A stretch of DNA of 64,000 nt from a virus: IMG/VR virus record IMGVR_UViG_3300037339_000380, positions 1 through 64,000 of that record. One strand, 5' to 3'. Both the position numbers and the translations under genes were made by a program. Below the pieces are notes generated by a model. It saw only the letters and a program-made list of their open reading frames with translations, searched no databases and was not told where the DNA came from. Numbering within the stretch: the stretch's first letter is position 1; every line of letters begins with the position of its first letter. This document shows positions 997-46,908 of this stretch, piece after piece.

Positions 997-1365
997 ATGT
1001 ACACAATTAGAAAAGAATTTCATTTTAGTGCAAGTCATTCTTTAAAAGGACTTCCAAAGGAACATCCTTGTTCAAACCTTCACGGACACAATTACGTGAT
1101 TACGGTAGAGTTACAAACACAAAAATTGGATAATGTAGGGTTTGTTGTAGATTACAGAAAATTAGAACCTATCAAACAATTTATTGATTTGCAACTTGAT
1201 CATCGTCATTTAAACGATATTACTCTTAGATTAGTTAATCCAACTGCTGAGAACTTAGCAAAACTTATCTTTGAAAGATTTAAGAAGGATTTTCCAACGC
1301 TTGTTGCAGTTGAAGTAAGTGAGACTCCAAAGACAACAGCACGTTACACACCTGATCACGACTAA
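997..1365 (+). CDS. queD: 6-carboxy-5,6,7,8-tetrahydropterin synthase (QueD)
   Basis: A 122-residue member of the PTPS/QueD family, the usual length for the bacterial enzyme. It converts 7,8-dihydroneopterin triphosphate, the FolE product, to carboxytetrahydropterin on the way to 7-deazaguanine. The zinc histidines are visible as H14, H29 and H31 (LHGHNY), the catalytic cysteine as C25, the D-H pair at 68-69 (LDHRH) and a late glutamate in VSET (E109). It is followed at one-base spacing by queE, with folE, queC and dpdA downstream, so the whole precursor pathway is phage encoded. Confidence 0.95.
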   Translation: MYTIRKEFHFSASHSLKGLPKEHPCSNLHGHNYVITVELQTQKLDNVGFVVDYRKLEPIKQFIDLQLDHRHLNDITLRLVNPTAENLAKLIFERFKKDFPTLVAVEVSETPKTTARYTPDHD

Positions 1366-1366
1366 T

Positions 1367-2134
1367 ATGGCTACACAAATTATACCCGCAGATCATCATA
1401 AGACAAGAAACACTTTCCAAAAGAATGGAGGGAATTTCTTGCGTATATCAGAATTCTACTCTGACACCATACAGGGAGAGGGTCCATGTATTGGAGCACC
1501 TGCTTCCTTTATTAGGCTACAAGGTTGCACATTAGGTTGCATTTATTGTGACACAGATGCAGTTTGGAGGTACGGAACCGCTTGGTCATATAATGAACTG
1601 TATAATTTATTGGAACAACATCAGTTACCTCAGAAATTATATGAAGGACAGCATTTGGTGTTTACAGGGGGCAGTCCATTATTACAACAGGATAAGATTA
1701 TAGGGTTCCTTAATTTCTTTGAAATGACATATAAATTTCTTCCATTCATTGAAATAGAGAATGAGTGTGTCATACAACCTTTACCAGAAATAATTGCATT
1801 AATGGATTGTTGGAACAACTCACCAAAGTTATCTAACAGTGGAGTTCCTTTTAAGTTAAGGTATAATGCATTAGCAATAGGAATGGTTGCTACATTACCA
1901 AATTCCTGGTTTAAGTTTGTTGTAGATAAAGAAGAAGATTGGAAAGAGATTCAAGATAATTTTATAGACCCTGGTTTTATAATGAAGAGTCAAATTATTT
2001 TGATGCCTATGGCAGAGACTCGTGAAAAGTTACTTCTTAACAGAGAAAGAGTTGTTGAAATAGCTATGAAACACAACGTAAGATACTGTTCCCGTGAACA
2101 TATTGCGCTGTGGGATAAAAAAATTGGGGTATAA
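1367..2134 (+). CDS. queE: 7-carboxy-7-deazaguanine synthase (QueE, radical SAM)
   Basis: A 255-residue radical SAM enzyme that rearranges carboxytetrahydropterin to 7-carboxy-7-deazaguanine (CDG). It has the QueE N-terminus with QGEG at 36-39, then the iron-sulphur cluster motif C54-x3-C58-x2-C61 followed by DTD, and a GGSPLL version of the SAM-binding GGEP motif near residue 102. The ATG at 1367 directly follows the queD stop; an earlier in-frame GTG at 1319 would lie inside queD and adds no conserved sequence, so the ATG is preferred. Confidence 0.93.
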   Translation: MATQIIPADHHKTRNTFQKNGGNFLRISEFYSDTIQGEGPCIGAPASFIRLQGCTLGCIYCDTDAVWRYGTAWSYNELYNLLEQHQLPQKLYEGQHLVFTGGSPLLQQDKIIGFLNFFEMTYKFLPFIEIENECVIQPLPEIIALMDCWNNSPKLSNSGVPFKLRYNALAIGMVATLPNSWFKFVVDKEEDWKEIQDNFIDPGFIMKSQIILMPMAETREKLLLNRERVVEIAMKHNVRYCSREHIALWDKKIGV

Positions 2135-2153
2135 CGGGCGTGAACCTAGCAAA

Positions 2154-2168
2154 TTTTTGTATAATATG
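2154..2168 (+). promoter_or_regulatory. candidate promoter, -10-like TGTATAATAT motif
   Basis: The 81-base gap after queE carries a T-tract followed by TGTATAATATG. The same T-tract plus TGTATAATAT string occurs in the only other real gap of the plus-strand block, at 14363, and a related string sits on the minus strand at 63230-63215. No convincing -35 hexamer is seen 17 bases upstream in any of them. A promoter reading is inference from the repetition and the position in gaps. Confidence 0.45.
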
Positions 2169-2215
2169 TCCTATTGTTTTTTTTATTAATTTCTTAAACT
2201 TTAAATTTGAATGAC

Positions 2216-2929
2216 ATGGTTAATGAAAAGCAGTTGCGTACAGCCGCAGCAGAGTTGAATGACGTTATGGGACTTGATCCCGAGATCCCTGTTAAGGGAA
2301 GTTTGAAAACCGTTACGGAAGGAATTGTCGAGGCTATTGACAAGATAGATCCTGACGATGAGTTCACTGAAGCTACCCAGGCTGTGATTGATGAACTTAC
2401 TCCTAAAAAGGGTAAAAAAGGAAAACCCGCTACCAAAAAGAAGAAAGAAGAGGAGGAAGAAGAAGAGGAGGATGATGCTGAATACACTGAACCTGATGAC
2501 GAGGAGGAGGAGGAAGAGGAAGAGGAAGAGGAAGAGGAAGAGGAAGAGGAAGAGGAAGAAAAACCCGCTCCCAAAAAGAAAGGTAAACCCGCTCCCAAAA
2601 AGGTAGCCAAGGAAGAAGAAGAGGATGATGAGGAAGCCGAAGACGAGGATGAAGAGGAAGAGGAAGCTCCTAAAAAGAAAAGAGCCGGTGGTCCTCCAAA
2701 AGGAGTAAAGCCCAGCTTCAAAAAAGAAGGATCAATGGCACAGTTTATGGACAACACCGTGAAAGCCGGAGGGAACTGGGATGAGATCTTTGCGAAGATT
2801 GAGAAGGAAGCCAAAAAGAGGGGTGTGAAAACTTCCTTAACAACCATCAAATCACACGTTAAGTTCCGCGTCAGTAAGGACGCTAAATTCCTTGGTAAGC
2901 TCAAAGTAACCGAGGATGGGATCGAGTAA
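2216..2929 (+). CDS. Lys/Glu-rich low-complexity protein, function unknown
   Basis: About 237 residues. Residues 1-60 look folded; the middle third is runs of glutamate and aspartate broken by basic KKKGKPAPKK-type segments, encoded by a GAGGAAGAG-type simple repeat near 2500-2560; the last 75 residues are again of normal composition and basic. Similar alternating acidic and basic stretches occur in the ssDNA-binding protein at 16927. The start is the ATG at 2216; a TTG three codons earlier is also open. It is the first gene after the candidate promoter and overlaps folE by 14 bases. I do not recognise a family; a nucleic-acid or histone-like role would be a guess from composition. Confidence 0.7.
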   Translation: MVNEKQLRTAAAELNDVMGLDPEIPVKGSLKTVTEGIVEAIDKIDPDDEFTEATQAVIDELTPKKGKKGKPATKKKKEEEEEEEEDDAEYTEPDDEEEEEEEEEEEEEEEEEEEEKPAPKKKGKPAPKKVAKEEEEDDEEAEDEDEEEEEAPKKKRAGGPPKGVKPSFKKEGSMAQFMDNTVKAGGNWDEIFAKIEKEAKKRGVKTSLTTIKSHVKFRVSKDAKFLGKLKVTEDGIE

Positions 2930-3467
2930 GGATTTAATAACTCAGATCCTATATGACTTAGGAGAGGCTCCTACCCGAGAGGGTTTGAAAGGAACTCCCT
3001 GCCGTGTCGTTAAATCATGGAGTGAAATATATGCCGGGTACACAATGGATGTACCTGGCATGTTCACTACATTTGTTGATACAAACGGTTACAGCCAAGT
3101 AGTGATATGTAAAAACATTGAACTATTTTCAATGTGTGAGCATCATATGTTACCCTTCTTTGGTAAAGTACACGTAGCTTATCTGCCGGACAAAAGAGTT
3201 ATTGGTTTATCCAAACTTGCACGTTTGGTAGAAGCGTTTTCAAGAAGGTTACAAATACAAGAAAGGATTGGTGAACAAGTTACTGATGCTCTTATGGATT
3301 ATCTACAACCAAAGGGTGCTGCCTGTATCATTAAAGCTACTCATATGTGCATGCGTATGAGAGGAGTCAATAAACAAAAGTCAACTATGATTACGTCATC
3401 CCTAAAAGGTACGTTCTTAGAAGATGAGATAGTGAGAATGGAACTTCTTCAACTTCTAAAAATATGA
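2916..3467 (+). CDS. folE: GTP cyclohydrolase I (FolE)
   Basis: A 183-residue type I enzyme that opens GTP to dihydroneopterin triphosphate, the entry step to folate and to 7-deazaguanine. Zinc ligands are visible as C74 and H77 in the CEHH motif and C145 in the later HMCM segment. The family signature around residues 87-110 (VAYLP..RVIGLSKLAR) and the final R(G)V segment are intact. The start lies inside the end of the preceding gene and the stop overlaps the next radical SAM gene by four bases (ATGA). Placed between QueE and QueC, it supplies the modification pathway. Confidence 0.95.
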   Translation: MGSSKDLITQILYDLGEAPTREGLKGTPCRVVKSWSEIYAGYTMDVPGMFTTFVDTNGYSQVVICKNIELFSMCEHHMLPFFGKVHVAYLPDKRVIGLSKLARLVEAFSRRLQIQERIGEQVTDALMDYLQPKGAACIIKATHMCMRMRGVNKQKSTMITSSLKGTFLEDEIVRMELLQLLKI

Positions 3468-4486
3468 TAAACTCACTTACTTATTTGACAAGAAGGTGTC
3501 CAAGGAACTGCGAATACTGTTCCTTACGTAATGCCGTAGGAGTAGGAGAAGAATTGACTTGGAAGGAATGGAGAGAAGCGTTTAGGATCTTGCATGAACT
3601 GGGTGTAGGCTTTAATCTCATCTTAGGTAATGAAACCTGGATATTGGGGGGAGCCCTTATAGATATAATGAAAGAAAATAAAGTTCCCTATGCTCTCTAT
3701 ACCACCTGTCCAGAACCCTTGTTTAGTATTCACAGAAGATCTTTCTTTGATTCAGGTATAGATAATTTGTCCTGCGGAGTGGATTACCCACCTCTTCCAG
3801 AGGCAGTACAGGATGATTCATATGAAAAGTCAATGTCTGCTTTGAAAGGACTTGCCTGGGTAAAAAGGGAATACCCACACGTTGACACACAAGGTACGAT
3901 AACTGTTCATAAAAAGAACATTAAATACCTACCTGAACTCGTACACAAGTTATCAGTGATGGGTGTCTTTGTTGGGATTAACTTCATACATTGGAACGTG
4001 GACGGTGGGTATGATTTCTTCCCAAAACCTGAGGAAATTCATGATTTACTATTTACCGGAAGGGATGAACACCAAGTAAGGTATTATCTAAATGAAGTAA
4101 TGGATGATGAAGAACACTTGGTACAAAATCCAGAGTTTCTCAGTCAAGATGTAAAAATGTTAATCAATATGGGTTGGCATTGCAAAGGTAATCCCTATGG
4201 TGGACCTACTGTTGATTCCGATGGTCATCTGCGTTGTTGTGGTTACAGAAGAGGCAGGTATTCTCCAAAAATTACAATATTTGATTTAGCCAATAAAGAT
4301 TGTAATTGTGATTGGAAAGAGGCAGTGTATCAGGATGCAATGGAATGTCCTGGTTGTGCTTGGTCATATCCCTGGATGTATCATTTTTGGGAAGAGACCA
4401 ATCCTAGCATGGGTGAAAAAGTATTTGTTAAGCATGCTGGAGAACATATTCCGAAAGATAAATGGAGTAAAAGAAAAATTGAATGA
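3464..4486 (+). CDS. radical SAM protein with C-terminal cysteine-rich (SPASM-like) region
   Basis: 340 residues. The cluster-binding motif is C12-x3-C16-x2-C19 near the N-terminus; the last third holds more cysteines (RCCGY, then CNCDW and CPGCAW) spaced like the auxiliary cluster of SPASM-type enzymes. These act on peptides, sugars or other bulky substrates. It is not QueE, which is a separate gene, and I do not recognise a named subfamily. It overlaps folE and the methyltransferase by four bases each, so it belongs to the 7-deazaguanine operon. A role in building the side group of the modified base is inference from position. Confidence 0.8.
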   Translation: MINSLTYLTRRCPRNCEYCSLRNAVGVGEELTWKEWREAFRILHELGVGFNLILGNETWILGGALIDIMKENKVPYALYTTCPEPLFSIHRRSFFDSGIDNLSCGVDYPPLPEAVQDDSYEKSMSALKGLAWVKREYPHVDTQGTITVHKKNIKYLPELVHKLSVMGVFVGINFIHWNVDGGYDFFPKPEEIHDLLFTGRDEHQVRYYLNEVMDDEEHLVQNPEFLSQDVKMLINMGWHCKGNPYGGPTVDSDGHLRCCGYRRGRYSPKITIFDLANKDCNCDWKEAVYQDAMECPGCAWSYPWMYHFWEETNPSMGEKVFVKHAGEHIPKDKWSKRKIE

Positions 4487-5157
4487 AAAGTTTTAATGAA
4501 GAAACAATCAAATTATTCAACAAAACCATCTTAGAAGATGAGTTTAATGATAAGTATCAAAACGATGACATCTATGATGGATTCGTTAGTGGTGGAAAGG
4601 AAATGATACGTTTGCTAAACACCGATGATCTCATGAGAGAATTGGATTCAGATGACATACCAAGACATGTATTGAACGTTGGTGCAGGTCAAGCAGATCT
4701 ACGAGTTATTTTTCCTCCTAACACTAAAATCTTTGACTTAGAACCCTGCCCACAACGTAAAACAGTTGATACTATTGAAGGCTGGAGTGAAAACATTGAA
4801 GGTAATTCTTTTGATGTTGTTGTTTGTTGGGGAGTGCTTTGCTTTGTAAGAAGTTTACCAGAAACATTGATTGAATTTAATCATATACTCTATAAAGGAG
4901 GTAATTTGATTACTGATGTTGTGGAATATTCCACGATGCCTCTGCCTCAAACGGTAAACCCAGACAACTTTGTTCGATGGATCAACTTGTTTGGATTTGA
5001 GTTAGAGGAAAGAATTAAATTTGGGAATCCTTATCATAAAAGAGTTGGTTACAGGTTTACCAAATTTGAAGAATTTAATCACAAAAGATTCCTTATGCCA
5101 CAGTGCGAAGGAAAAATCAATAACTTTTTACCAGAGAGGGACTGGTTCTTAAAATAA
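4483..5157 (+). CDS. class I SAM-dependent methyltransferase-like protein
   Basis: 224 residues with a Rossmann methyltransferase layout: motif I as LNVGAGQADLR near residue 65, an acidic end to strand 2 (IFDLEP), then FDVVVCWGVL as the motif IV strand and YKGGNLI as the strand after it. No DNA methyltransferase catalytic motif (DPPY, NPPY or PCQ) is present, so a small-molecule, sugar or modified-base acceptor is more likely than adenine or cytosine. It sits between the radical SAM gene and queC, one base apart from the latter. Substrate unknown. Confidence 0.72.
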   Translation: MKSFNEETIKLFNKTILEDEFNDKYQNDDIYDGFVSGGKEMIRLLNTDDLMRELDSDDIPRHVLNVGAGQADLRVIFPPNTKIFDLEPCPQRKTVDTIEGWSENIEGNSFDVVVCWGVLCFVRSLPETLIEFNHILYKGGNLITDVVEYSTMPLPQTVNPDNFVRWINLFGFELEERIKFGNPYHKRVGYRFTKFEEFNHKRFLMPQCEGKINNFLPERDWFLK

Positions 5158-5158
5158 T

Positions 5159-5704
5159 ATGGGAAAACATTACGATTTGATTCTCCTTTTTAGTGGAGGG
5201 TTTGACAGTACTCTGTTACTGAAAATAGCATTGAGACATGGACTGGTTCCATATTGCGTTATGTTTGACTATGGTCAGAAACACGTAGTAGAATTGGAAT
5301 ATGCAAAAAAGATCTGTAAGGATAATGATGTTGACTGGGTTGTGGTTTACTTAGCAGTACCATTTCAATCTAACCTAATGGATGTCAAGAAAACTTATGA
5401 AGGAGTTAATGTACATCACGTACCTTCTAGAAATCTTATGTTTGTATCAATTGCGGCAGGCATAGCAGAGAGTATGGAAGTACCTCTTATATGGTATGGT
5501 GCTAATTATGAGGACAGAGAGAAACTGTTCCCTGACTGTTACCAAGAATGGGTGTACAAAGTTAATGAACTATTGTCTATCAATGGTAGTATGATTGTAA
5601 AAGTTGAGGCTCCTTTGCTTGGGATGTCCAAAGAACTGATTAAAATTCAAGCAGAAGTATTAGGTATTAAAAATGAACAAATATTTACTGGTTATGGAGA
5701 GTGA
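5159..5704 (+). CDS. queC: QueC-like 7-deazaguanine amidation/nitrile synthase, zinc site missing
   Basis: 181 residues. QueC uses ATP and ammonia to turn CDG into its amide (ADG) and then the nitrile preQ0. The PP-loop SGGFDST lies at about 13-19, FDYGQKH follows, and the VPSRN segment with LAAG-like helix is intact. Full-length QueC ends in a four-cysteine zinc site beginning TCYxG; here the matching segment reads FTGYGE and the protein stops, so the first zinc cysteine is a glycine and the rest is absent. Family members are usually near 220-230 residues. The next reading frame does not encode the lost part. Activity, or a halt at the amide, cannot be decided here. Confidence 0.85.
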   Translation: MGKHYDLILLFSGGFDSTLLLKIALRHGLVPYCVMFDYGQKHVVELEYAKKICKDNDVDWVVVYLAVPFQSNLMDVKKTYEGVNVHHVPSRNLMFVSIAAGIAESMEVPLIWYGANYEDREKLFPDCYQEWVYKVNELLSINGSMIVKVEAPLLGMSKELIKIQAEVLGIKNEQIFTGYGE

Positions 5705-6071
5705 TAAAGTTTTTACGAAATTAGTGGACAAGCATTATAGTCCACTTCTGATCAGGAAGTACACTCATTGGGGCTTCCCGATCTACGTTGGTTTGATTAC
5801 CGATGATAACTTGGAAAACCTTGACACATTTATTCAAGGCTTTATGAAAGATTATGCTAAGGATGGTTGGGTAAATAACCTTCAAACCCTTCGTAATTTA
5901 GCAGGAAGATTAACTGAAGAACTAAATGATTACTATCCCAAAGCAGAAGGTGTAGCAGTTGTTTTCTACGTTGACAAATGTTTCATCTCCTCTTTACATG
6001 GGGACTTTATGAATCATGCTTCATGTCGTATTGAATTCTATGGACTGTTACAAATGTCTACAGGTGTATGA
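5694..6071 (+). CDS. hypothetical protein in the 7-deazaguanine operon
   Basis: 125 residues from the ATG at 5694, which overlaps the queC stop by 11 bases; another ATG at 5673 adds seven residues and a longer overlap. Mixed alpha/beta composition with one HYSP segment near the start, a hydrophobic AVVFYVD strand and a later CFISSLHGD segment. No signal peptide or membrane segment. It is followed with a four-base overlap by the PIG-L-like gene. I do not recognise a family. Confidence 0.65.
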   Translation: MESDKVFTKLVDKHYSPLLIRKYTHWGFPIYVGLITDDNLENLDTFIQGFMKDYAKDGWVNNLQTLRNLAGRLTEELNDYYPKAEGVAVVFYVDKCFISSLHGDFMNHASCRIEFYGLLQMSTGV

Positions 6072-6538
6072 AATATGTAATCATAGCACCACACGCCGAT
6101 GATGAGATTATCGGTTGTTATGAATTGTTAGCTACAGGTTTGGTAAGAACTGTTCTTTTCCCTGACGAATCAACATTAAAAGAAGCAGAGAAATCAAGTG
6201 AGCATTTTTCATTCGGTAAAGGTCTTATTGAAGATGAGGACTATTACCGATCACTTGATATAACATACCTGTTTCCAGACCCATACTTTGAGGCACACCC
6301 AAAACACAGGGAAATAGGTTCACTTGGGGAGAGCCTTCTAAGGCAGCACAGGCAAGTTGTTTTTTATAGTACTACTATGTCCGCTCCTTATATTCATGAG
6401 GTGACACAGCCCGCAATCAAACGTCAATGCCTAAACAAGTTGTATCCTACTAAAAAGGACCTGTGGGCATACGAACATAAATTTTTCCTTTTTGAAGGAT
6501 ATAATAAATGGATATTGAAATGGGACGACTTATTTTAG
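6068..6538 (+). CDS. PIG-L / LmbE-type deacetylase-like protein
   Basis: 156 residues. The N-terminal strand runs into APHADDE (residues 7-13), the zinc-binding PHPDDE signature of the PIG-L family, and a second signature HPKHREIG (77-84) matches the family HPDHR motif that gives the third zinc ligand. PIG-L enzymes remove acetyl groups from N-acetylglucosamine conjugates, as in GPI anchors, MshB in mycothiol and BshB in bacillithiol synthesis. The protein is shorter than most members (about 220 or more residues). It is directly followed by a GT-B glycosyltransferase, the same pairing as MshA/MshB and BshA/BshB. Confidence 0.82.
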   Translation: MKYVIIAPHADDEIIGCYELLATGLVRTVLFPDESTLKEAEKSSEHFSFGKGLIEDEDYYRSLDITYLFPDPYFEAHPKHREIGSLGESLLRQHRQVVFYSTTMSAPYIHEVTQPAIKRQCLNKLYPTKKDLWAYEHKFFLFEGYNKWILKWDDLF

Positions 6539-7458
6539 TGCCACAGTACCCCACCAGATTGAGATATCAGGAATGGTGGTTTTCAGAATTCCCTAACAAT
6601 TTTATCAATTACTTTGACGAAGTGATTAGTTTAGGAACATATTCTAAAAGTGGGTACCTTACAACAATGGATAGTAGTAAATTTGCACCTATAAACGAAG
6701 CCTTAGAATTTGAACTATATCAAATAAGTTCTTTGAGTACTTTCAATTTTAAAGATGATGATGTTCTTTTACTCAATGATTTAAGTTATCCTGGGTTGTT
6801 CACACAAGCACTGTTTCATAACAGACCAAAGAAATGTTTTGCCATCTGTCATGCTACAAGTAGAAACGCATATGATTATTTTGCCAAAGACAGGCAATTA
6901 AAATATCCTATTGAAAAAACTACTGCTAAATTGTTCAAACATATCTTTGTAGGATCAAACTATCATGCTAACAAGTTAGGATGGAAAAATATTATTGTTA
7001 CAGGACTCCCAAAACCTCCGTTTTCCTCCAGCGTGCATAAACAAGAAAAGAGATTCCCAATCATAAGTGTAGCAAGAGATACAATGCAGAAAAGAACGAA
7101 AGAAATAGAGGAGGAGGTAAAACGAGCATTTCATTGTAAAATATTCAATCCTAAACCTACTGACTGGGCTTCCTATTATGATGCCCTGTCATACTCTAAA
7201 GTATTATTGATTACTGCAAAGGAGGAAACATACGGTTATCAAATTGTTGACGCTATAATGAATGACTGTATCCCTGTTGCCCCAAATCATTTTAGTTATC
7301 CCGAGTTGATTCCCAAAAATTATTTGTATAATAGTATAAACGAATTAATTGCCATTTTGATTAAGGCTCTTGGTGGGGAATTACCAGTACCACAATTACT
7401 GACAGAAAAACGTTCTCTAACATTCTATGAAGATTTAGCAAAGTATATGCAACAATGA
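6508..7458 (+). CDS. GT-B fold glycosyltransferase-like protein (GT4-like)
   Basis: 316 residues. The C-terminal half has the GT4 donor-site pattern: a KEETYGYQ segment, then IVDAI, then IPVAPNHFSYPEL, which matches the E-x7-E region and loop of retaining GT-B enzymes that use UDP- or GDP-sugars. The N-terminal half reads as the acceptor domain and has a VLLLNDLSY strand. The start at 6508 overlaps the PIG-L gene by 31 bases; an ATG at 6520 is possible. Overlap with dpdA is four bases. Its acceptor may be the modified base; that is inference from context. Confidence 0.75.
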   Translation: MDIEMGRLILVPQYPTRLRYQEWWFSEFPNNFINYFDEVISLGTYSKSGYLTTMDSSKFAPINEALEFELYQISSLSTFNFKDDDVLLLNDLSYPGLFTQALFHNRPKKCFAICHATSRNAYDYFAKDRQLKYPIEKTTAKLFKHIFVGSNYHANKLGWKNIIVTGLPKPPFSSSVHKQEKRFPIISVARDTMQKRTKEIEEEVKRAFHCKIFNPKPTDWASYYDALSYSKVLLITAKEETYGYQIVDAIMNDCIPVAPNHFSYPELIPKNYLYNSINELIAILIKALGGELPVPQLLTEKRSLTFYEDLAKYMQQ

Positions 7459-8552
7459 AAAAACCAACTGTAATCTTAGACTCTGGTGCCTACACAGCAT
7501 TCAGAAAAGGAAAAACTATTGACATAGATGAATATGCCGAATTCATAAAAAAGCATGGTCATCTATTTGCAGGTTGTTTCAATTTGGATTCTATTGGCTC
7601 AGGTATGAAAGAAAGTAGGGATAAGTCCAAAGATAAGGATGTAGTTACTACTGCAAAACAAAGTTTTCTTAATTGGATGTACCTCCGAAAGCAAGGGATT
7701 GACACAATTCCTATCTATCATATGGGAACAAACCAAGTGTGGTTACGCAAATATCTTGAACGGACTGACTATGTAGGTATAGGGGCAATAGCAAACCTAA
7801 ACACCTCACAACGTTTGATGGGACTGTCTGCTCTATGGAAAAAATACTTTGTTGACAAAAATGGAAACCCGATAGTAAAAGTTCATGGATTAGGATTAAC
7901 GGCAATACCAATGATGGTACGCTATCCCTGGTACTCCGTTGACAGTTTTACTCCTGTAATATCAGCCGTGTGGGGAAGCATCCTTTTACCTAAATTGAAC
8001 AGTGAAGGAATCCCTTCCTACTTCAATATGTCCATTAATAAGGTATCAGACCAGGGGGATCATAAGGATAATATGGAAAACAGTTATCTAAATGTTCCTG
8101 TACGAAATAAAAAGTTCTATGAAAAAATGTTTACTGAACATGGGTTTGAACTTGGTCAGATAACAGGTCAGGAAAAGCATGATAGAAGAGGTAAGAAAGG
8201 AGAACAAGCAAGGAAACCTCCAAAACTTCCTGGATTTAATTTAGTAAATCCTTCCGATCCAAACATAAAAACATTGGCAAACAGTTGGGAAATAAGGATG
8301 AAATGGAATCTTATCATGTGGAATCATTTGAAAGAAAGGATGCCTATTTATCCAAGACCGTTTGTTGATGAGGATGATTACTGGAAAGAAGAAATAACTG
8401 GCAAAATAAACTGGTGGATGAATATGGGAGTGTCAACAATAACGCACTTGGACATATTCAAATCTGTAAAACCTGCTCATGATATATTAATCAGCTATGC
8501 ATACATGACAGATGGTATTTATAACAAAATATTTAAAGAGTATATGAAATGA
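7455..8552 (+). CDS. dpdA: DpdA-like DNA 7-deazaguanine transglycosylase
   Basis: 365 residues with the tRNA-guanine-transglycosylase (TGT) barrel signature. DSGAY at 9-13 corresponds to the TGT DSGGF/Y catalytic aspartate, YVGIGAIA near 106-113 and HGLGL near 144-148 are the family glycine-rich loops, and D163 in YSVDSF is placed like the second catalytic aspartate. Phage DpdA proteins swap guanine in DNA for a 7-deazaguanine. Neighbouring QueD, QueE, FolE and QueC supply the base. C-terminal region has a basic lysine-rich stretch near 245-262 suited to DNA contact. I rate the family call high; which base it inserts is unknown. Confidence 0.87.
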   Translation: MKKPTVILDSGAYTAFRKGKTIDIDEYAEFIKKHGHLFAGCFNLDSIGSGMKESRDKSKDKDVVTTAKQSFLNWMYLRKQGIDTIPIYHMGTNQVWLRKYLERTDYVGIGAIANLNTSQRLMGLSALWKKYFVDKNGNPIVKVHGLGLTAIPMMVRYPWYSVDSFTPVISAVWGSILLPKLNSEGIPSYFNMSINKVSDQGDHKDNMENSYLNVPVRNKKFYEKMFTEHGFELGQITGQEKHDRRGKKGEQARKPPKLPGFNLVNPSDPNIKTLANSWEIRMKWNLIMWNHLKERMPIYPRPFVDEDDYWKEEITGKINWWMNMGVSTITHLDIFKSVKPAHDILISYAYMTDGIYNKIFKEYMK

Positions 8553-8962
8553 GATCATACCTGTCTGCAGGATTAATTGTCCTACAGGGATATAAAATAT
8601 TGTTGGTGCATCCTAGGAACGCTTCCTGGTGGGGAACATATTCTATACCTAAAGGGATTGTTGAACCTGGGGAATCTCCTTGGGATACTGCAATACGGGA
8701 AACAGAAGAGGAAACAGGTGTAAGAATTGATAAACGTGATACGTTTTGTGCAGGACAAATTTGGTATCCAAACAGTAAGAAATCCGTTCTATACTTTTTG
8801 GCATATCCAAAAGAACATATTGAATTAAGATTTAAACCAAATGATGAAGTCGATTGGGCAGGGTTTGTGTCAAAAGCAGACGCTCTGCCTAGAATATTTC
8901 CTCCCCTTAAGGAGGTACTTTTATATGTTAAAGAAATGAAAAGAACAAGAAAACCAAAATGA
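8549..8962 (+). CDS. Nudix hydrolase
   Basis: 137 residues with a complete Nudix box at residues 36-58: G36, E42, then RETEEETGV (50-58), matching GX5EX7REUXEEXGU. Nudix enzymes hydrolyse nucleoside diphosphates linked to another group, such as damaged dNTPs, NDP-sugars or pterin triphosphates. It overlaps dpdA and the next gene by four bases each. In folate synthesis a Nudix enzyme acts on dihydroneopterin triphosphate, so a pterin substrate is one option, but the sequence does not say which. Confidence 0.9.
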   Translation: MRSYLSAGLIVLQGYKILLVHPRNASWWGTYSIPKGIVEPGESPWDTAIRETEEETGVRIDKRDTFCAGQIWYPNSKKSVLYFLAYPKEHIELRFKPNDEVDWAGFVSKADALPRIFPPLKEVLLYVKEMKRTRKPK

Positions 8963-9627
8963 AAAGGACAATTCTTCCAATTACTCCATTATTTGACATT
9001 CCCAAGTCAGAGAGAATTACTAATCAGGGAACAACTACATTAAAGAAAGATGTAGAAAGAATACTCCTTCCAGAATTAAAAAAGTTTGGATATGAGGGTA
9101 AGTTAATCAATTATAAGGAAGTAGAAAAAGTAAGAACAAAAAACGTTTATTATGAAGAGGGTAAGGGCAAACCAAGTATTCCTCCCAAGGATTTATTCTT
9201 ACATGAAACTTCAGGGTTCTTTCTAATGGTACAGGAACGGGGTAGAAAATCCCCCATACTATTGATGAAACCCTTTGTAAGACCTACTATTGATGATGTT
9301 ACTGATATTCCAAGACTTAACTTGGAAACTGAAACAGTTCGAGGTATGATGACTTATGCAGTACCTGAAGCAAGAATAAAAGCCATATTGCATAGTGTAT
9401 CAATCTTAAACCTGCATTTCATAATAATGACTGAAACAAAACAATTTTGGATAGGTAGATTTGCTGATATTCCTGAGAACCTTTATTTTCTAACTTGGAG
9501 ACATCAGAAAGGAGTATTGGATAGGTTGGCTGTAAAATCCAAAGCACATGAAACAGGACAATTTCATAGTACTAAATCAAGGTTAGCAAATGATTTGAAA
9601 CTTTATATGTATCCTAAAAAATCATAA
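8959..9627 (+). CDS. hypothetical protein downstream of dpdA and nudix genes
   Basis: 222 residues, basic at both ends, no membrane segment. A KPFVRP segment precedes an acidic IDDVTDIPRLNLETE stretch, and a hydrophobic LNLHFIIMTET strand is followed by FWIGRF. No recognised family. It is joined to the Nudix gene by a four-base overlap and is followed two bases later by the sliding clamp, so it bridges the modification and replication genes. Confidence 0.65.
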   Translation: MKRTILPITPLFDIPKSERITNQGTTTLKKDVERILLPELKKFGYEGKLINYKEVEKVRTKNVYYEEGKGKPSIPPKDLFLHETSGFFLMVQERGRKSPILLMKPFVRPTIDDVTDIPRLNLETETVRGMMTYAVPEARIKAILHSVSILNLHFIIMTETKQFWIGRFADIPENLYFLTWRHQKGVLDRLAVKSKAHETGQFHSTKSRLANDLKLYMYPKKS

Positions 9628-9629
9628 AT

Positions 9630-10658
9630 ATGATAGTAAACAAAGATCAATTACAAAAGGCTTTGGAAATTGTAAAGCCAGGACTTGCCAACAAAGAACA
9701 GATTGAGCAGTCAACTTCCTTTGCCTTCATAAAGGGCAGGGTCATTACTTACAATGACGAGATAAGTATTTCCCATCCCGTAAAAGGATTAAATCTTGAA
9801 GGGGCTATATTGGCTGAGAACCTGTACAAGTTCTTAACCAAGATAAAAAAGGAAGAGATAGAACTTGAACTTGTGGATAACGAAATTGTACTTACCTCAG
9901 AAAAAGCTAAGGCAGGTCTTCTGTTACAAACAGAAATTAAACTTCCATTGAAGGAAGAGATAGCAGAGAAAAGCCAATGGCATCCCCTACCAGAAAACTT
10001 TGTACATGATGTTGCTTTTTCTATGACTGTTTGTACTAAAGACATGAGTCGTCCAGTTTTAACCTGTGTTCATGTAACTAAAGCAGGTTATATTGAAGCA
10101 AGTGACAGTTACAGAATTGTCCGTTGTGATTTAGGTTCCCCTATGCCAGTAAACACTTTTTTATTACCCTCTATATCCGCAGTAGAAGTGGTTAAGATAA
10201 AACCTATTGAAGTAGCAAGTGGAAGAGGATGGGTTCATTTTAAAAATGAAGAGAAAACGATTATGTCATGTCGTATATTTGAAGATAAATATCCTCCTAC
10301 AACAGGCTTCTATACCGAAGAAGGAGTTAGAGTTATCCTTCCCAAAACAACAGAAGAAATTTTGGGAAGGGCTCAAGTCTTTTCAAAGAGAGATCATTTA
10401 TTGGATGAAGAGATATCCATTACAATCGAGAACAAGACATTTTTAATGGAATCCCGTTCTGATACAGGTTGGTTCAAAGAAAATGTTCCAATAAAGTATG
10501 ATGGGGATCTAATCAGATTTGAAATAACTCCTTACCTGTTAAAAGGAATACTATCTGAAACACGTGAATTTAAATACGCAAAAGATAAACTGACTTTCCG
10601 AGGGGAAAGATGGTTTTATGCTTCTATGTTGAGACAAACCAAGTCAAAGAAACAATAA
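9630..10658 (+). CDS. DNA polymerase sliding clamp (DnaN-like)
   Basis: 342 residues, close to bacterial beta clamps (about 365). The layout is three repeats of a beta-rich domain; recognisable family segments are ASDSYRIVR near 162 (compare the TDGHRL/SDSYRL loop of DnaN) and EDKYPPT near 222 (compare the GRFPDY/YP loop). The protein would hold the polymerase on DNA. The clamp loader at 15000 is its expected partner, and the UDG-exonuclease gene begins one base inside its stop codon (TAATG). Confidence 0.78.
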   Translation: MIVNKDQLQKALEIVKPGLANKEQIEQSTSFAFIKGRVITYNDEISISHPVKGLNLEGAILAENLYKFLTKIKKEEIELELVDNEIVLTSEKAKAGLLLQTEIKLPLKEEIAEKSQWHPLPENFVHDVAFSMTVCTKDMSRPVLTCVHVTKAGYIEASDSYRIVRCDLGSPMPVNTFLLPSISAVEVVKIKPIEVASGRGWVHFKNEEKTIMSCRIFEDKYPPTTGFYTEEGVRVILPKTTEEILGRAQVFSKRDHLLDEEISITIENKTFLMESRSDTGWFKENVPIKYDGDLIRFEITPYLLKGILSETREFKYAKDKLTFRGERWFYASMLRQTKSKKQ

Positions 10659-11905
10659 TGGAAGGCTTCTTTACAAAAAAGGAAACAGAATCAAAATCCC
10701 GACCACAGGGTAAAAGAATATCCTGCGTATCTTGTGGGTTATATGGGAATTGTCAATCCCCACGAATGGCTCCATATGGTAACTTTAAAAGAAAGATATT
10801 AAATATTGGAGAGGCTCCTGGAGAAGTGGATGATAAATATGGTAAGCCCTTCCAAGGTAAGGCTGGAAAGATGTTGCAAAGAATGTACGATGATTTGGAC
10901 ATTGATTTATTTGAGGATTGTGTCAATATTAATGCAGTAAATTGTCGTCCGACAGATGCCCAAGGTCACAACAGAGCCCCTTCTAACGCAGAGGTCGATT
11001 GCTGCCGAAGACGGGTACTTCAAACAATAGAGGAGTACAAGCCCAAGTTAATAATGGTACTCGGTTCTTCTGCCCTGTACAGTCTGATTGGGCACAGGTG
11101 GCGTAAGGATCTAAGTGGGATAAGTAAATGGCGTGGATTTCAGATACCTGACCAGGATTTTAAAACTTGGATTTGCCCTACATTTAGTCCAAATTACATA
11201 GAAAAAGCAATAAATAACCCAATGTTCCAAAACAAAGGAGGTGTTATTGAAGAACTGTTTTGGAAACAAGATTTAGATTATGCTTTTAATTTGATAAAAA
11301 ATAATGTTCCTGTAACCAAATACGTTGAACCTGAGATAGAGATTATTGAAGACCTGTCTGTATTGAGTAAAATAAATTATGAAAGTGCGTTTGACTATGA
11401 AACAACAGGTTTAAAACCACACGCTGAAGGACACAGAATAGTTTGTATATCAATTGCTGACACAGAAAATCATGCTTATGCCTTTCTTTTACCTAAAACG
11501 AAAAACAAAAGACAACCCTTCATAGATTACCTAACTAACCCTGGATTACGAAAAGTAGCACAAAACCTTAAGTATGAACACACCTGGTCTAAAGTAAGAT
11601 TGGGTGTGGATGTACAAGGTTGGGAATGGGATACTATGATAGCCACTCATGTAATGGACAACAGACCTGGAATAACAGGGTTAAAGTTTCAAGTATATGT
11701 ACAATTTGGTATTGTTGATTATACCAGTGACGTAGACTCCTATTTAGGTTCATCAGATGCAGAAGGGGCCAACACAAAAAACAGGATCCTTGAGTTGTTA
11801 GACAAACCTGGGGGTAAAGAAGCTTTATGTAAATACTGTGGGCTTGACAGTATTTATGAATTACGATTAGCAAACTTACAAAGAATGAATTTATTACCAT
11901 TTTAA
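10658..11905 (+). CDS. family 4-like uracil-DNA glycosylase domain fused to DnaQ-like 3'-5' exonuclease
   Basis: 415 residues. Residues 20-200 resemble an iron-sulphur UDG: CVSCGLYGNC (C23, C26, C32), the GEAPGE motif at 51-56, and later cysteines at 96 and 115-116. Residues 235-415 resemble the proofreading domain of family A polymerases: DYETTG (D246, E248), NLKYEH, WDTMIATHVMD and the last YCGLDS motif. The order UDG-exo-polymerase is known in one chain in phage SPO1 polymerase, from memory. Here the polymerase is a separate gene at 12936. The ATG at 10658 overlaps the clamp stop; an in-frame start at 10610 lies inside the clamp gene and is rejected. Confidence 0.82.
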   Translation: MEGFFTKKETESKSRPQGKRISCVSCGLYGNCQSPRMAPYGNFKRKILNIGEAPGEVDDKYGKPFQGKAGKMLQRMYDDLDIDLFEDCVNINAVNCRPTDAQGHNRAPSNAEVDCCRRRVLQTIEEYKPKLIMVLGSSALYSLIGHRWRKDLSGISKWRGFQIPDQDFKTWICPTFSPNYIEKAINNPMFQNKGGVIEELFWKQDLDYAFNLIKNNVPVTKYVEPEIEIIEDLSVLSKINYESAFDYETTGLKPHAEGHRIVCISIADTENHAYAFLLPKTKNKRQPFIDYLTNPGLRKVAQNLKYEHTWSKVRLGVDVQGWEWDTMIATHVMDNRPGITGLKFQVYVQFGIVDYTSDVDSYLGSSDAEGANTKNRILELLDKPGGKEALCKYCGLDSIYELRLANLQRMNLLPF

Positions 11906-11906
11906 T

Positions 11907-12719
11907 ATGACAGCAAATAACCTAACAATCTGCATTGACGCTCCTTGTAACAAGAAGTGTCCTTACTGCATTTCTAATATGACTTTTTATCCAAAACCAG
12001 ATACTTCCCTATTTGGTAGAAATATAGGAAAAGCAGTTAATATGGCACAGATGGCATCTGTTAGCAGTGTCCTTATCTCCTCCAAGGGAGAACCATTGCT
12101 TAATATAAATGCTATTACTTTCTGTTGTGTTATGTTTGCCGATTTCCCGTTAGAAATACAAACCAAAGGACTCCTGCTTACTCCCGAACTAATCATGAAA
12201 CTACACAATCTGAGAATAAATACAATAGCTATCTCAGTAGAGAAGTATGGTGATTTGTTTGACTTTAAACATTACAAACTATGCAATGATTTAGGAATAA
12301 ATATTAGAATTACCGTTGTTCTTTCTGATCTCTGGAGTCCTCCAAGTGGATATGATTTCTTGGCTGACTGTAATCAGCTTGGAATAAAACAAGTAACCTT
12401 CCGAATGTTATCTATTCCGACAAAAGAACTTACTACGGCAAAGAGTCTGAAGACTATTGAATGGATTGAGGTACATCAGATAAATCAGGAAAAACTGGCT
12501 ATGTTTCTGGAACCACTCCACTCATATGAAAAGGAAGAAAATCTTGTAAGAAAACTGTCCTTTGGTCCTTCTGTCTATGAAATGGAAGGTGTAGCAGTTA
12601 CCACAATGCCATATTGCATACAGGAAAATAATAACACAGAAGATATAAGGTCATTGATTTATCATCAGGATGGCCATATGTACACATCATGGGATAAGAA
12701 AGCATCAATACTATTTTAA
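11907..12719 (+). CDS. radical SAM protein, unknown substrate
   Basis: 270 residues. The cluster motif C14-x3-C18-x2-C21 follows a short N-terminal strand, SKGEPLLN near residues 60-67 is the SAM-binding GGEPLL-type motif, and several strands of the partial TIM barrel follow. It lacks the C-terminal cysteine cluster seen in the protein at 3464. It sits one base after the exonuclease gene and before the polymerase gene, an odd place for such an enzyme. No named subfamily recognised; QueE is already encoded elsewhere. Confidence 0.8.
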   Translation: MTANNLTICIDAPCNKKCPYCISNMTFYPKPDTSLFGRNIGKAVNMAQMASVSSVLISSKGEPLLNINAITFCCVMFADFPLEIQTKGLLLTPELIMKLHNLRINTIAISVEKYGDLFDFKHYKLCNDLGINIRITVVLSDLWSPPSGYDFLADCNQLGIKQVTFRMLSIPTKELTTAKSLKTIEWIEVHQINQEKLAMFLEPLHSYEKEENLVRKLSFGPSVYEMEGVAVTTMPYCIQENNNTEDIRSLIYHQDGHMYTSWDKKASILF

Positions 12720-12720
12720 T

Positions 12721-12939
12721 ATGAAAAACGAAAAATTTAATATGCTAAGATCAATCGGAGTTTTTAAAGATTGGCATCGTTCAGGGAAAGCTTCTGATAA
12801 AACAGAAAAAAGAAAAATGGAAAGAAGTCATGGTAGAATGGTCTGGATATCCAGAGACATATCAATACTTCCAATGACAGGACTACAATCTAATCGTGGC
12901 AGGGGAACTTATATAAGACAAAAACATGGTGTCTTATGA
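12721..12939 (+). CDS. small basic protein between radical SAM and polymerase genes
   Basis: 72 residues, strongly basic, with a KASDKTEKRKMERSHGR segment and no hydrophobic helix. The ATG at 12721 follows the stop of the radical SAM gene by one base and its own stop overlaps the polymerase start by four bases (ATGA). A longer in-frame version from 12670 would overlap the upstream gene. Function unknown; it may bind nucleic acid by charge, which is only a guess. Confidence 0.5.
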   Translation: MKNEKFNMLRSIGVFKDWHRSGKASDKTEKRKMERSHGRMVWISRDISILPMTGLQSNRGRGTYIRQKHGVL

Positions 12940-14348
12940 ACTATTTAGACCCAGAAATGTACTCAGGATACCAATTGTTACATGATGGTATCTTAGCACT
13001 TGCACGTGCTGAACAACAAGGGCTTCGGGTAGATATGGAATACCTGGAAGGTAAAAAGAAACATATCACCAGAGAAATTGAAAAACTGGAAGAACAGTTC
13101 AAGAAAACCAAATTCTTTAAACACTGGCAACATACAGTAAAAGGGAATGTTAATATTCATTCCAATGTACAGTTAGCTAATTTCCTCTACAAGATCAAAG
13201 GGATTAAAATAGAAAAAGAAACGATCTCAGGACAAGGAGCGACCGACGAAGAGGCGTTAGGTCAGATGGGGATTCCCGAATTAACTAATTTGGTTAGGAT
13301 AAGAAAACTTAAGAAAGTACGGGATACTTATTTACAAGGATTTGACAGAGAACAAATTGATGGATACATCCATCCTTTCTTTAACTTACATTTGGTAAAA
13401 ACATATCGTTCCAGTTCAGATCATCCTAACTTTCAAAATATACCCAAGCGAGATGAGGAAGCAATGAATATTGTTAGGAGAGCCTTGTTCCCACGTCCCG
13501 GACATCAGTTACTTGAACTCGACTATTCTGGACTTGAAGTACGTATTGCTGCCTGTTATCATAAGGATAAGACAATGTTACGTTATATAAAAGATCCTAC
13601 GACAGATATGCATACGGATATGGCACAACAGTTGTTTATGATTGACAATTTTGATAAAGACATACCCTCTCATTATGTTTTAAGACAGGCAGCAAAAAAC
13701 TCATTCGTGTTTCCAGAGTTTTACGGGGATTATTATAAAAACTGTGCAATAGGAATGGCTTGTGGTTGGGGTAAACTTCCTCAGGGGAAGTGGGGACCTG
13801 GACAGGGTATTGATATAACAGAAACAGAAACATTGTCTGACCATTTTAGAAAGAAAGGAATTAAATCACTTGATGACTTTACCGATCATGTACAAAAGAT
13901 AGAAAAGGATTTCTGGAGTAATCGTTTTGCTGATTATGCCAAGTGGAAAGAGCTTTGGTGGAAACAGTATAAGAAAACAGGTGTTGTCAAAATGTTTACA
14001 GGATTTCAATGTACAGGAGTTATGTCTAAGAATGACGTAATAAACTATCCTGTTCAAGGTGCTGCCTTTCATTGTTTACTTTGGTCTTTTATTGAATTAG
14101 ATAGAGTTATGACAAAAAACAAAATGGATTCTAAACTTGTTGGACAGATACATGACTCCATTCTAATTGACATTAATCCTAATGAATTAGAAGATATAAT
14201 CAAACTTGCATACAAAGTAACCTGTCAAGATCTACCAAAGGCTTGGTCTTGGATTATAGTTCCGTTAGATATTGAAATAGAACTTGCTCCTATAGATGGC
14301 AGTTGGGCAGAGAAAGAGAAATATGAATATAAATATTTCTTTGTGTAA
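12936..14348 (+). CDS. DNA polymerase family A, polymerase domain only
   Basis: 470 residues covering only palm, thumb and fingers. The template-contact segment SSSDHPNFQNIP lies at 159-170, motif A LELDYSGLEVR at 193-203 with catalytic D196, motif B is an unusual R..K..F...YG form near 255-270, and motif C reads QIHDSILID, with serine where most family A enzymes have glutamate. No exonuclease domain is present; that is carried by the protein at 10658. Together the two chains add up to a normal length of about 885 residues. Confidence 0.9.
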   Translation: MNYLDPEMYSGYQLLHDGILALARAEQQGLRVDMEYLEGKKKHITREIEKLEEQFKKTKFFKHWQHTVKGNVNIHSNVQLANFLYKIKGIKIEKETISGQGATDEEALGQMGIPELTNLVRIRKLKKVRDTYLQGFDREQIDGYIHPFFNLHLVKTYRSSSDHPNFQNIPKRDEEAMNIVRRALFPRPGHQLLELDYSGLEVRIAACYHKDKTMLRYIKDPTTDMHTDMAQQLFMIDNFDKDIPSHYVLRQAAKNSFVFPEFYGDYYKNCAIGMACGWGKLPQGKWGPGQGIDITETETLSDHFRKKGIKSLDDFTDHVQKIEKDFWSNRFADYAKWKELWWKQYKKTGVVKMFTGFQCTGVMSKNDVINYPVQGAAFHCLLWSFIELDRVMTKNKMDSKLVGQIHDSILIDINPNELEDIIKLAYKVTCQDLPKAWSWIIVPLDIEIELAPIDGSWAEKEKYEYKYFFV

Positions 14349-41430: not shown

Positions 41431-41809
41431 CGGTATTGTCAAATTGAGGTATTGCATAAATAGTTGCTGACTTCTTACCAGACAGTGCTAACTTACCTGT
41501 CGTGTCTAATTGCAATAACATCTGCCCGTAAGGAGTTGAATTAAATCCAGTTCCTAACTTATCACTGTATGATACCTCAGCTTCACCAATTCTTTCTTTC
41601 GTAGTTGTACGATAGTGAATACTGGCAATCATATGAGCAGTTAACCACTTTGTAAGTTCTGTTTTCAAAGTGACTGTTACCGTAGTATCTAGACTGAAAA
41701 CACTATTTATAAAGTTTTCAGACGCTATGATGTATGGAGTAATCTGATCACTGGTCAGAGTACAACCACTCATTATTTCTAATACTTCATCACTTGTCAA
41801 GCATGCCAT
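41423..41809 (-). CDS. gp6-like head-tail connector
   Basis: 128 residues, helical first half (ITPYIIASENFINSVF, LTKWLTAHMIASIHYR) and a C-terminal loop region with GFNSTPYGQMLLQLD, the pattern of phage gp6-type adaptor proteins that bind the portal. It has an AGGAGGT Shine-Dalgarno located inside the end of the sulfotransferase gene, so it restarts expression of structural genes after the glycan island. Confidence 0.7.
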   Translation of the reverse strand: MACLTSDEVLEIMSGCTLTSDQITPYIIASENFINSVFSLDTTVTVTLKTELTKWLTAHMIASIHYRTTTKERIGEAEVSYSDKLGTGFNSTPYGQMLLQLDTTGKLALSGKKSATIYAIPQFDNTDE

Positions 41810-46907: not shown

Positions 46908-46908
46908 A

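What the first reader, a model, noticed from the sequence alone, without database searches (positions are those of the whole stretch)
997..8962. Candidate new sugar-bearing 7-deazaguanine DNA modification operon
Seen: QueD, QueE, FolE, QueC-like and DpdA-like genes in one tightly coupled run, plus a PIG-L-type deacetylase (APHADDE, HPKHREIG), a GT-B glycosyltransferase, a SPASM-like radical SAM protein and a methyltransferase, joined by 1-31 base overlaps. Known: phage DpdA systems put preQ0, preQ1, archaeosine and simple derivatives into DNA; GT plus PIG-L pairs (MshA/MshB, BshA/BshB, GPI synthesis) attach GlcNAc and then deacetylate it. Inferred: the phage attaches an amino sugar to its 7-deazaguanine, or to its precursor, and alters it further by radical and methyl chemistry. 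I do not know of a described 7-deazaguanine system with a glycosyl branch of this make-up.
Basis: partly seen in the sequence, partly recalled or inferred. Interest (0 to 1): 0.92.

Follow-up and report, generated by a model that had tools for sequence, protein, structure and literature searches.

The report
Phage amino-sugar 7-deazaguanine operon
This phage gene cluster makes a modified guanine and swaps it into DNA, and it travels, here and in dozens of other phages, with a sugar-attaching enzyme and a sugar-deacetylating enzyme, so the phage probably decorates that guanine with an amino sugar, a kind of DNA base I found no published report of.

Summary
The operon is real. QueD, QueE, FolE, a QueC-like enzyme and DpdA lie in one tightly packed run with a radical SAM enzyme, a methyltransferase, a PIG-L-family deacetylase and a GT4-like glycosyltransferase.

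The link between the sugar enzymes and 7-deazaguanine holds in a search that used PIG-L alone. Of 39 further PIG-L relatives, 37 have the glycosyltransferase within 6 kb downstream, and 32 have a 7-deazaguanine or transglycosylase gene in the locus. A PP-loop ATPase often sits in the same block, of one of two types: QueC-like with the T-fold protein (26 loci), or PAPS-reductase-like with a QueE-resembling protein (11 loci), never crossed. Cultured Xanthomonas phage X1 carries the second type.

Best reading: a 7-deazaguanine DNA base carrying a deacetylated amino sugar, probably coupled by its amine to the C7 carboxyl or nitrile. Sugar, linkage and order of steps are inferred; nothing here is biochemical.

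The parts
997..1365 (+). QueD, 6-carboxytetrahydropterin synthase
   Evidence: PF01242 8e-34, TIGR03367 above cut-off
1319..2134 (+). QueE, 7-carboxy-7-deazaguanine synthase (true start probably 1367 or 1439)
   Evidence: phrog_2076 2e-45; start sites
2207..2929 (+). acidic low-complexity protein, conserved between QueE and FolE in 9 loci; role unknown, may not belong to the pathway
   Evidence: clustering of neighbouring ORFs
2916..3467 (+). FolE, GTP cyclohydrolase I
   Evidence: PF01227 1e-68
3464..4486 (+). radical SAM enzyme; conserved cysteines also in the C-terminal half; optional part of the module
   Evidence: PF04055 4e-6; PDB SkfB 2e-7, MoaA 1e-4
4483..5157 (+). class I methyltransferase, variable part of the operon
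   Evidence: PF13489 1e-5; missing or replaced in several relatives
5159..5704 (+). QueC-like PP-loop ATPase, 181 aa, keeps SGGxDS, YxQxHxxE, VPxRN and FPDC, lacks the zinc motif
   Evidence: PF06508 8e-32; motifs
5673..6071 (+).
   Evidence: AlphaFold2 pLDDT 83; GTP cyclohydrolase I Z 12.8, QueF-L Z 10.0; profile comparison with FolE
6068..6538 (+). PIG-L-family deacetylase, short form, PHxDDE and HPxH metal motifs kept
   Evidence: PF02585 in 7 of 26 relatives; diacetylchitobiose deacetylase 0.0016; alignment
6508..7458 (+). GT4-like (GT-B) glycosyltransferase (start may be 6520)
   Evidence: PF00534 in 10 of 26 relatives; PDB 5i45, 2f9f
7455..8552 (+). DpdA, DNA guanine transglycosylase
   Evidence: phrog_887 2e-38; tblastn to 187 phage records; D9, H144, D163 shared with Quinobequin-P09 gp80
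8549..8962 (+). NUDIX hydrolase, variable part of the operon
   Evidence: PF00293 4e-17
8959..9627 (+). 222-aa protein of unknown function that follows DpdA in several relatives
   Evidence: no Pfam or PHROG match; neighbourhood table

Best explanation
The operon builds a 7-deazaguanine base carrying a deacetylated amino sugar and puts it into phage DNA. FolE, QueD and QueE make 7-carboxy-7-deazaguanine (CDG) from GTP (established pathway). The GT4-like enzyme transfers a sugar, probably GlcNAc, and the PIG-L enzyme removes its acetyl group to expose an amine (inferred from families). A PP-loop ATPase activates the C7 carboxylate: either the QueC-like enzyme joins the sugar amine to it as an amide, or it makes preQ0 and the sugar amine is added to the nitrile as an amidine (inferred). 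The T-fold protein is taken to bind the base or its conjugate. DpdA exchanges guanine in DNA for the product or its precursor. Radical SAM, SDR and methyltransferase are optional decorations. Shown: gene content, family assignments, conserved linkage. Inferred: the sugar, the linkage, the order of steps, and that DNA is the target.
For: PIG-L and GT are tied to 7-deazaguanine genes in many divergent phages: over 68 distinct PIG-L proteins, GT within 6 kb in 66 and a 7-deazaguanine or transglycosylase gene within 12 kb in 60; for the 39 found by PIG-L alone, 37 and 32. A PP-loop ATPase lies within 6 kb in 41 of 68 and exists in two interchangeable versions, each with its own small partner, never crossed. 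The window QueC keeps the base-binding motif, and QueC-family Cap9 joins CDG to an amine (PMC13279940). ArcS adds an amine to preQ0 (PMC11298593). DpdA is a true relative of phage DNA transglycosylases. The T-fold protein resembles 7-deazaguanine and pterin enzymes.
Against: No biochemical data. The GT donor and acceptor are unknown. 7 of 27 module QueCs keep the zinc motif and could simply make preQ0. Several phages have the GT without a detected PIG-L. The T-fold protein lacks recognisable FolE metal residues or the QueF cysteine. Some QueC/U132 pairs occur without PIG-L in their record.
Confidence: 0.58

Rival explanations
1. The sugar is added after insertion: DpdA first puts preQ0, ADG or CDG into DNA, and GT and then PIG-L work on the DNA-bound base, as T4 glucosyltransferases do with hydroxymethylcytosine.
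For: The GT gene directly precedes the DpdA gene in most window-type loci, with a 4-base overlap in the window. Phage GTs acting on DNA are established for T4 (PMC13216743, seen).
Against: preQ0, ADG and CDG offer no hydroxyl for a usual O-glycosyl transfer, and the conserved link to a PP-loop ATPase fits an amine-coupling step better. This rival shares the final product class with the best explanation.
Confidence: 0.2
2. GT and PIG-L serve another product (host surface glycan, virion glycan or a thiol-like metabolite) and only happen to lie in the operon; the DNA base is a simple preQ0, ADG or CDG.
For: The same genome has a separate glycan gene set at 41.8-48.9 kb. Simple 7-deazaguanines are what has been measured in phages so far (PMC6884629).
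Against: The association with 7-deazaguanine and transglycosylase genes holds in 60 of 68 distinct PIG-L contexts across divergent phages and gene orders, and GT with PIG-L is 66 of 68.
Confidence: 0.12
3. PIG-L does not act on a sugar but is an amidase on the 7-deazaguanine side chain, and the GT attaches a neutral sugar.
For: The window family is much shorter than typical PIG-L enzymes (about 150-165 aa), so its substrate may differ; GT occurs without a detected PIG-L in some phages.
Against: The nearest solved relatives are diacetylchitobiose deacetylases, and GT with PIG-L is the classic GlcNAc transfer and deacetylation pair (established knowledge of MshA/MshB and BshA/BshB).
Confidence: 0.1
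4. The target is host tRNA, not DNA: a queuosine-like hypermodified tRNA base.
For: Transglycosylases of this superfamily act on tRNA in cells, and sugars on queuosine are known from tRNA (own knowledge). No sequence result here shows the substrate.
Against: The enzyme belongs to phrog_887 and aligns with DpdA of Quinobequin-P09, keeping D9, H144 and D163; relatives of that phage group carry the modification in DNA (PMC6884629).
Confidence: 0.06

Closest known systems
Phage 7-deazaguanine DNA modification with DpdA (9g, CAjan, Quinobequin-P09; PMC6884629)
   Same: FolE, QueD, QueE, QueC-family ATPase and DpdA in one cluster
   Different: The Quinobequin-P09 region shows no annotated GT or deacetylase and has Gat-QueC instead of a zinc-less QueC; no glycosyl branch is described for the measured phages
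Mycothiol and bacillithiol synthesis (MshA/MshB/MshC, BshA/BshB/BshC)
   Same: GT4-type transferase, PIG-L deacetylase, then an amine-coupling enzyme (own knowledge)
   Different: Here the third enzyme is a PP-loop ATPase of the QueC or PAPS-reductase family, and the neighbours make 7-deazaguanine
Cap9 of type IV CBASS and QatC (PMC13279940, PMC13329287)
   Same: QueC-family ATPase with the catalytic motifs and a short size (Cap9 about 185 aa); Cap9 couples CDG to an amine
   Different: Cap9 and QatC keep zinc cysteines and modify a protein N-terminus; the window QueC lacks them and sits in a DNA-modification operon
ArcS with RaSEA, archaeosine synthesis (PMC11298593)
   Same: An amine is added to preQ0, and a radical SAM enzyme acts on the adduct
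   Different: The amine is lysine and the substrate is tRNA; no ArcS was recognised among the operon proteins
Sugar-modified queuosine in tRNA (galactosyl- and mannosyl-queuosine; own knowledge)
   Same: A sugar on a 7-deazaguanine
   Different: There the sugar is on the cyclopentenediol of queuosine; no QueA was recognised among the operon proteins scanned

Membership tests
DpdA-type 7-deazaguanine DNA modification | DpdA-family transglycosylase with catalytic Asp residues and conserved His | tested here: met
   phrog_887 2e-38; D9, H144 and D163 shared with Quinobequin-P09 gp80; that H144 is the His196 of phage 9g was not checked directly
DpdA-type 7-deazaguanine DNA modification | FolE, QueD, QueE and a QueC-family gene in the cluster | tested here: met
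DpdA-type 7-deazaguanine DNA modification | modified 7-deazaguanine present in phage DNA | not testable with these tools
   needs nucleoside mass spectrometry
Canonical QueC (cluster 1 of PMC13329287) | SGGxDS, YxQxHxxE, VPxRN and YPDC motifs | tested here: met
   all present in the window protein, with FPDC for YPDC; Y131F of E. coli QueC kept partial activity (PMC13329287)
Canonical QueC (cluster 1 of PMC13329287) | C(x)8CxxCxxC zinc motif | tested here: not met
   protein ends at TGYGE before the motif; absent in 20 of 27 module QueCs
Cap9-type CDG ligase | zinc motif CE(x)6CxxCxxCxD and a CD-NTase neighbour | tested here: not met
   no zinc motif; PADLOC scan of ten operon proteins shows only QueC matches for this gene and no CD-NTase
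PIG-L deacetylases | family profile match and HxDD...HxxH metal motif | tested here: met
   PF02585 in 7 of 26 relatives, although the window protein itself is below cut-off; motif conserved
GT-B / GT4-like glycosyltransferases | Glycos_transf_1-type C-terminal domain | tested here: met
   PF00534 in 10 of 26 relatives and two GT domains in the PDB; the window protein alone has no match
FolE/QueF/QueF-L T-fold enzymes (for U132) | T-fold | tested here: met
   predicted structure pLDDT 83; GTP cyclohydrolase I Z 12.8, QueF-L Z 10.0, QueF Z 9.2; a predicted fold, not a solved one
FolE/QueF/QueF-L T-fold enzymes (for U132) | FolE zinc/His active site or QueF catalytic Cys | tested here: not met
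   FolE CEHH and HxC residues have no counterpart in the profile alignment; the Cys position of QueF is a hydrophobic residue by counting from the conserved Asp, which is an approximate placement
SPASM radical SAM enzymes | SPASM domain (auxiliary cluster) | tested here: inconclusive
   conserved C-terminal cysteines, weak PqqE match over residues 5-51 only, no SPASM Pfam hit
Mycothiol/bacillithiol-like pathway | cysteine ligase (MshC or BshC) after GT and PIG-L | not tested
   none of the operon proteins scanned matched one, but no dedicated search was made

The most novel reading that the evidence does not exclude
A zinc-less QueC, or in other phages a PAPS-reductase-like ATPase, acts as a ligase that couples the freed amine of a glucosaminyl group to the carboxyl of CDG, and DpdA inserts the conjugate: a glycosylated purine in DNA built by mycothiol-style logic, with a T-fold protein and a QueE-resembling protein reused as partners.
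Probability: 0.22. Interest if true: 0.93.

Novelty: new variant of a known kind. Interest (0 to 1): 0.76.

Why it matters
If true, phage DNA can carry a sugar on a purine, which would widen the known DNA modifications well beyond small C7 groups and would bear on how phages escape restriction and how hosts might recognise them. The module is in a cultured phage (Xanthomonas phage X1), and the GT without detectable PIG-L lies by QueE in PA5oct-like Pseudomonas phages, so one nucleoside mass-spectrometry run can test it. It also gives a likely pathway to several protein families with no or weak annotation.

Tried and rejected
A DpdA-only scan of viral contigs gave a single relative, so GT, T-fold, radical SAM, PIG-L and QueC profiles were used instead. 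A first structure of U132 from 4 sequences was poor (pLDDT 63) and was replaced by a 24-sequence one. The viral structure library gave no fold match under E 0.001 for U132, and a sequence-profile search of the PDB found nothing. QueF-like nitrile chemistry for U132 was considered and marked down for lack of the Cys. The idea that all module QueCs lack zinc was dropped: 7 of 27 keep it. The small partner of the PAPS-reductase-like version looks QueE-derived by eye, but the profile comparison is weak (probability 17, E 0.0015), so this is only suggestive. The phrog_887 search of the X1 and PhiXhv records rang nowhere, controls included, and shows nothing. The PIG-L profile search of PhiXhv, PAC2, Phosso, ACP17 and BUCT-ZZ01 gave nothing, although PhiXhv has an annotated deacetylase beside its GT, so divergent PIG-L can be missed. 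Literature: no paper found in the held library describes a glycosyl branch of 7-deazaguanine DNA modification; the jumbo-phage survey mentions the PA5oct deazaguanine system without one. The 2023 paper on further phage 7-deazaguanines (PMC10516641) is not held, so its phage list was not checked. Promoter and terminator scans were at background. PADLOC showed little beyond QueC.
Full report
WHAT IS THERE. The window is nearly all of a 66.8-kb virus record. From 997 to 9627 thirteen genes run on the + strand, most joined by 4-base overlaps. Family scans give QueD, QueE, FolE, a radical SAM enzyme, a methyltransferase, a QueC-family ATPase, DpdA and NUDIX. GT and PIG-L score at family level: PF00534 in 10 of 26 relatives and PF02585 in 7 of 26. 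The solved structures nearest to the PIG-L family are diacetylchitobiose deacetylases (E 0.0016), and those nearest to the GT family are group-1 GT domains.

THE MISSED GENE. The 132-aa protein at 5673-6071 ('U132') has no Pfam, PHROG, NCBIfam or PDB sequence match. With 24 relatives AlphaFold2 gives pLDDT 83. The predicted fold is a T-fold: GTP cyclohydrolase I is nearest (Z 12.8), then archaeosine synthase QueF-L (Z 10.0) and QueF (Z 9.2); Foldseek's best E is 3.6e-4. A profile comparison with the FolE proteins of the same loci aligns 108 columns, with the C-terminal SSLxGxF...RxExxxLL shared and the FolE metal and active-site residues missing. Its last residues (MSTGV, LPHI, MTGV and similar) end at the same column in all relatives. 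I read it as a 7-deazaguanine- or pterin-binding relative of FolE that has lost FolE catalysis; its role is unknown.

QueC. The window QueC is 181 aa and stops before the zinc motif, while keeping the catalytic motifs described in PMC13329287. Its FPDC corresponds to the motif whose aromatic and Asp residues recognise the base in Cap9 and B. subtilis QueC (PMC13279940). Among 27 module QueCs, 20 lack zinc cysteines and 7 keep them; several that keep them (L110, L114, L116, L118, L122) are among the more divergent members by score, so the loss looks derived, but no tree was made. In L033, a relative with radical SAM, SDR and DpdA but no GT, PIG-L or U132, both QueC-family proteins keep zinc-type cysteines.

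COMPARATIVE TEST. Starting from the GT, U132, radical SAM, and finally PIG-L alone and QueC, the neighbourhoods of about 160 loci, many of them overlapping copies of one contig, were mapped with profiles built here. Over 68 distinct PIG-L proteins: GT within 6 kb in 66; any 7-deazaguanine or transglycosylase gene within 12 kb in 60; PP-loop ATPase within 6 kb in 41. For the 39 PIG-L proteins found only by the PIG-L query: GT on the same strand in 38, within 6 kb downstream in 37, and a 7-deazaguanine or transglycosylase gene in the locus in 32. Many loci are cut by contig ends, so the counts are lower bounds. Limits: the GT profile is broad; relatedness was not corrected for beyond removing identical PIG-L proteins; and within GT-bearing loci about 15% of + strand ORFs lie 0-2.5 kb upstream of the GT anyway, against 61 of 68 PIG-L genes.

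TWO VERSIONS. Version 1 (window type) pairs QueC with U132 (26 loci). Version 2 pairs a PAPS-reductase-family ATPase (PF01507) with a small protein beginning KIGIEVEG or similar, which resembles QueE without the Fe-S motif (11 loci; the homology is weak). No locus crosses them. Both have PIG-L and GT. This suggests that a PP-loop ATPase is a working part of the sugar branch. Large phages (contigs up to 312 kb) carry GT, PIG-L and QueE, often with a thymidylate-synthase-like gene and a transglycosylase-like gene. Cultured examples: Xanthomonas phage X1 is version 2; PhiXhv-15 has a Gat-QueC-like gene, a PIG-L-like gene and GT side by side, with QueD and a transglycosylase-like match elsewhere in the genome; ACP17, Phosso, BUCT-ZZ01 and PAC2 (PA5oct-like) have the GT beside 7-deazaguanine genes but no detected PIG-L.

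MECHANISM. Established: FolE, QueD and QueE make CDG; QueC-family enzymes activate its carboxylate with ATP and accept ammonia or, in Cap9, a protein amine (PMC13279940); ArcS adds lysine to preQ0 and a radical SAM enzyme follows (PMC11298593); DpdA puts 7-deazaguanines into phage DNA (PMC6884629). GT plus PIG-L is the GlcNAc transfer and deacetylation pair of mycothiol and bacillithiol synthesis (own knowledge). Inferred: the freed amine is the handle by which sugar and 7-deazaguanine are joined, by an amide (ligase model) or an amidine (nitrile model), before or after DpdA. I give 0.58 to an amino-sugar 7-deazaguanine base in DNA and 0.22 to the specific ligase model.

MEMBERSHIP AND NOVELTY. 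The cluster meets the genomic criteria of a DpdA system; its QueC does not meet those of canonical QueC (zinc motif absent). No held paper that I found describes a glycosyl branch, and one key 2023 paper on phage 7-deazaguanines is not held, so prior description cannot be excluded. I rate it a new variant of a known kind.

Noticed in passing
window 41790-48916, - strand: A second sugar gene set inside the structural-gene region: sulfotransferase (PF13469), at least three family-2 glycosyltransferases, an RmlD-like reductase, an FAD oxidoreductase that looks like a UDP-galactopyranose mutase, and a methyltransferase-like protein. It may glycosylate the virion or the host surface.
   Followed up: partly
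window 11907-12719, + strand: A second radical SAM gene (PF04055 1e-8) lies between a gene that looks like a uracil-DNA-glycosylase fused to an exonuclease (10610-11905) and a PolA-like polymerase (12936-14348).
   Followed up: no
window 2207-2929, + strand: A very acidic low-complexity protein with a conserved C-terminal part sits between QueE and FolE in nine related loci; function unknown.
   Followed up: no
L046 17239-18039 and relatives: Large phages with GT, PIG-L and QueE also carry a thymidylate-synthase-like gene (PF00303 9e-10) next to a transglycosylase-like gene (phrog_887 1.6e-6).
   Followed up: partly
L054 5897-6736, L057 5812-6657: In these two contigs the open frame of U132 continues upstream into a segment with a weak SLOG match (PF18306, 0.009); fusion or two genes in one frame was not settled.
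   Followed up: no
L069 and L070: The module occurs on contigs binned as a Halanaerobiales bacterium and a Woesearchaeota archaeon; these may be phage contigs and could hint at hosts.
   Followed up: no
L012 2336-9030 (PhiXhv-15): Upstream of the Gat-QueC-like, PIG-L and GT genes lie several genes that look like acyl- or aminoacyl-transferases (one annotated leucyl/phenylalanyl-tRNA-protein transferase), so that phage may carry a further decorated base.
   Followed up: no
L029, L031, L154: U132 relatives occur in loci where no PIG-L or GT was seen; L029 and L154 also show a zinc-less QueC, and the whole records of L029 and L031 have no PIG-L match. The QueC/U132 pair may work without the sugar enzymes, or these records are fragments.
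   Followed up: partly
L013, L014, L015, L016: Cultured phages ACP17, Phosso, BUCT-ZZ01 and PAC2 (PA5oct-like) carry the GT beside 7-deazaguanine genes without a detected PIG-L, and share a ~125-aa protein (phrog_17812, unknown function) of QueD-like look.
   Followed up: partly
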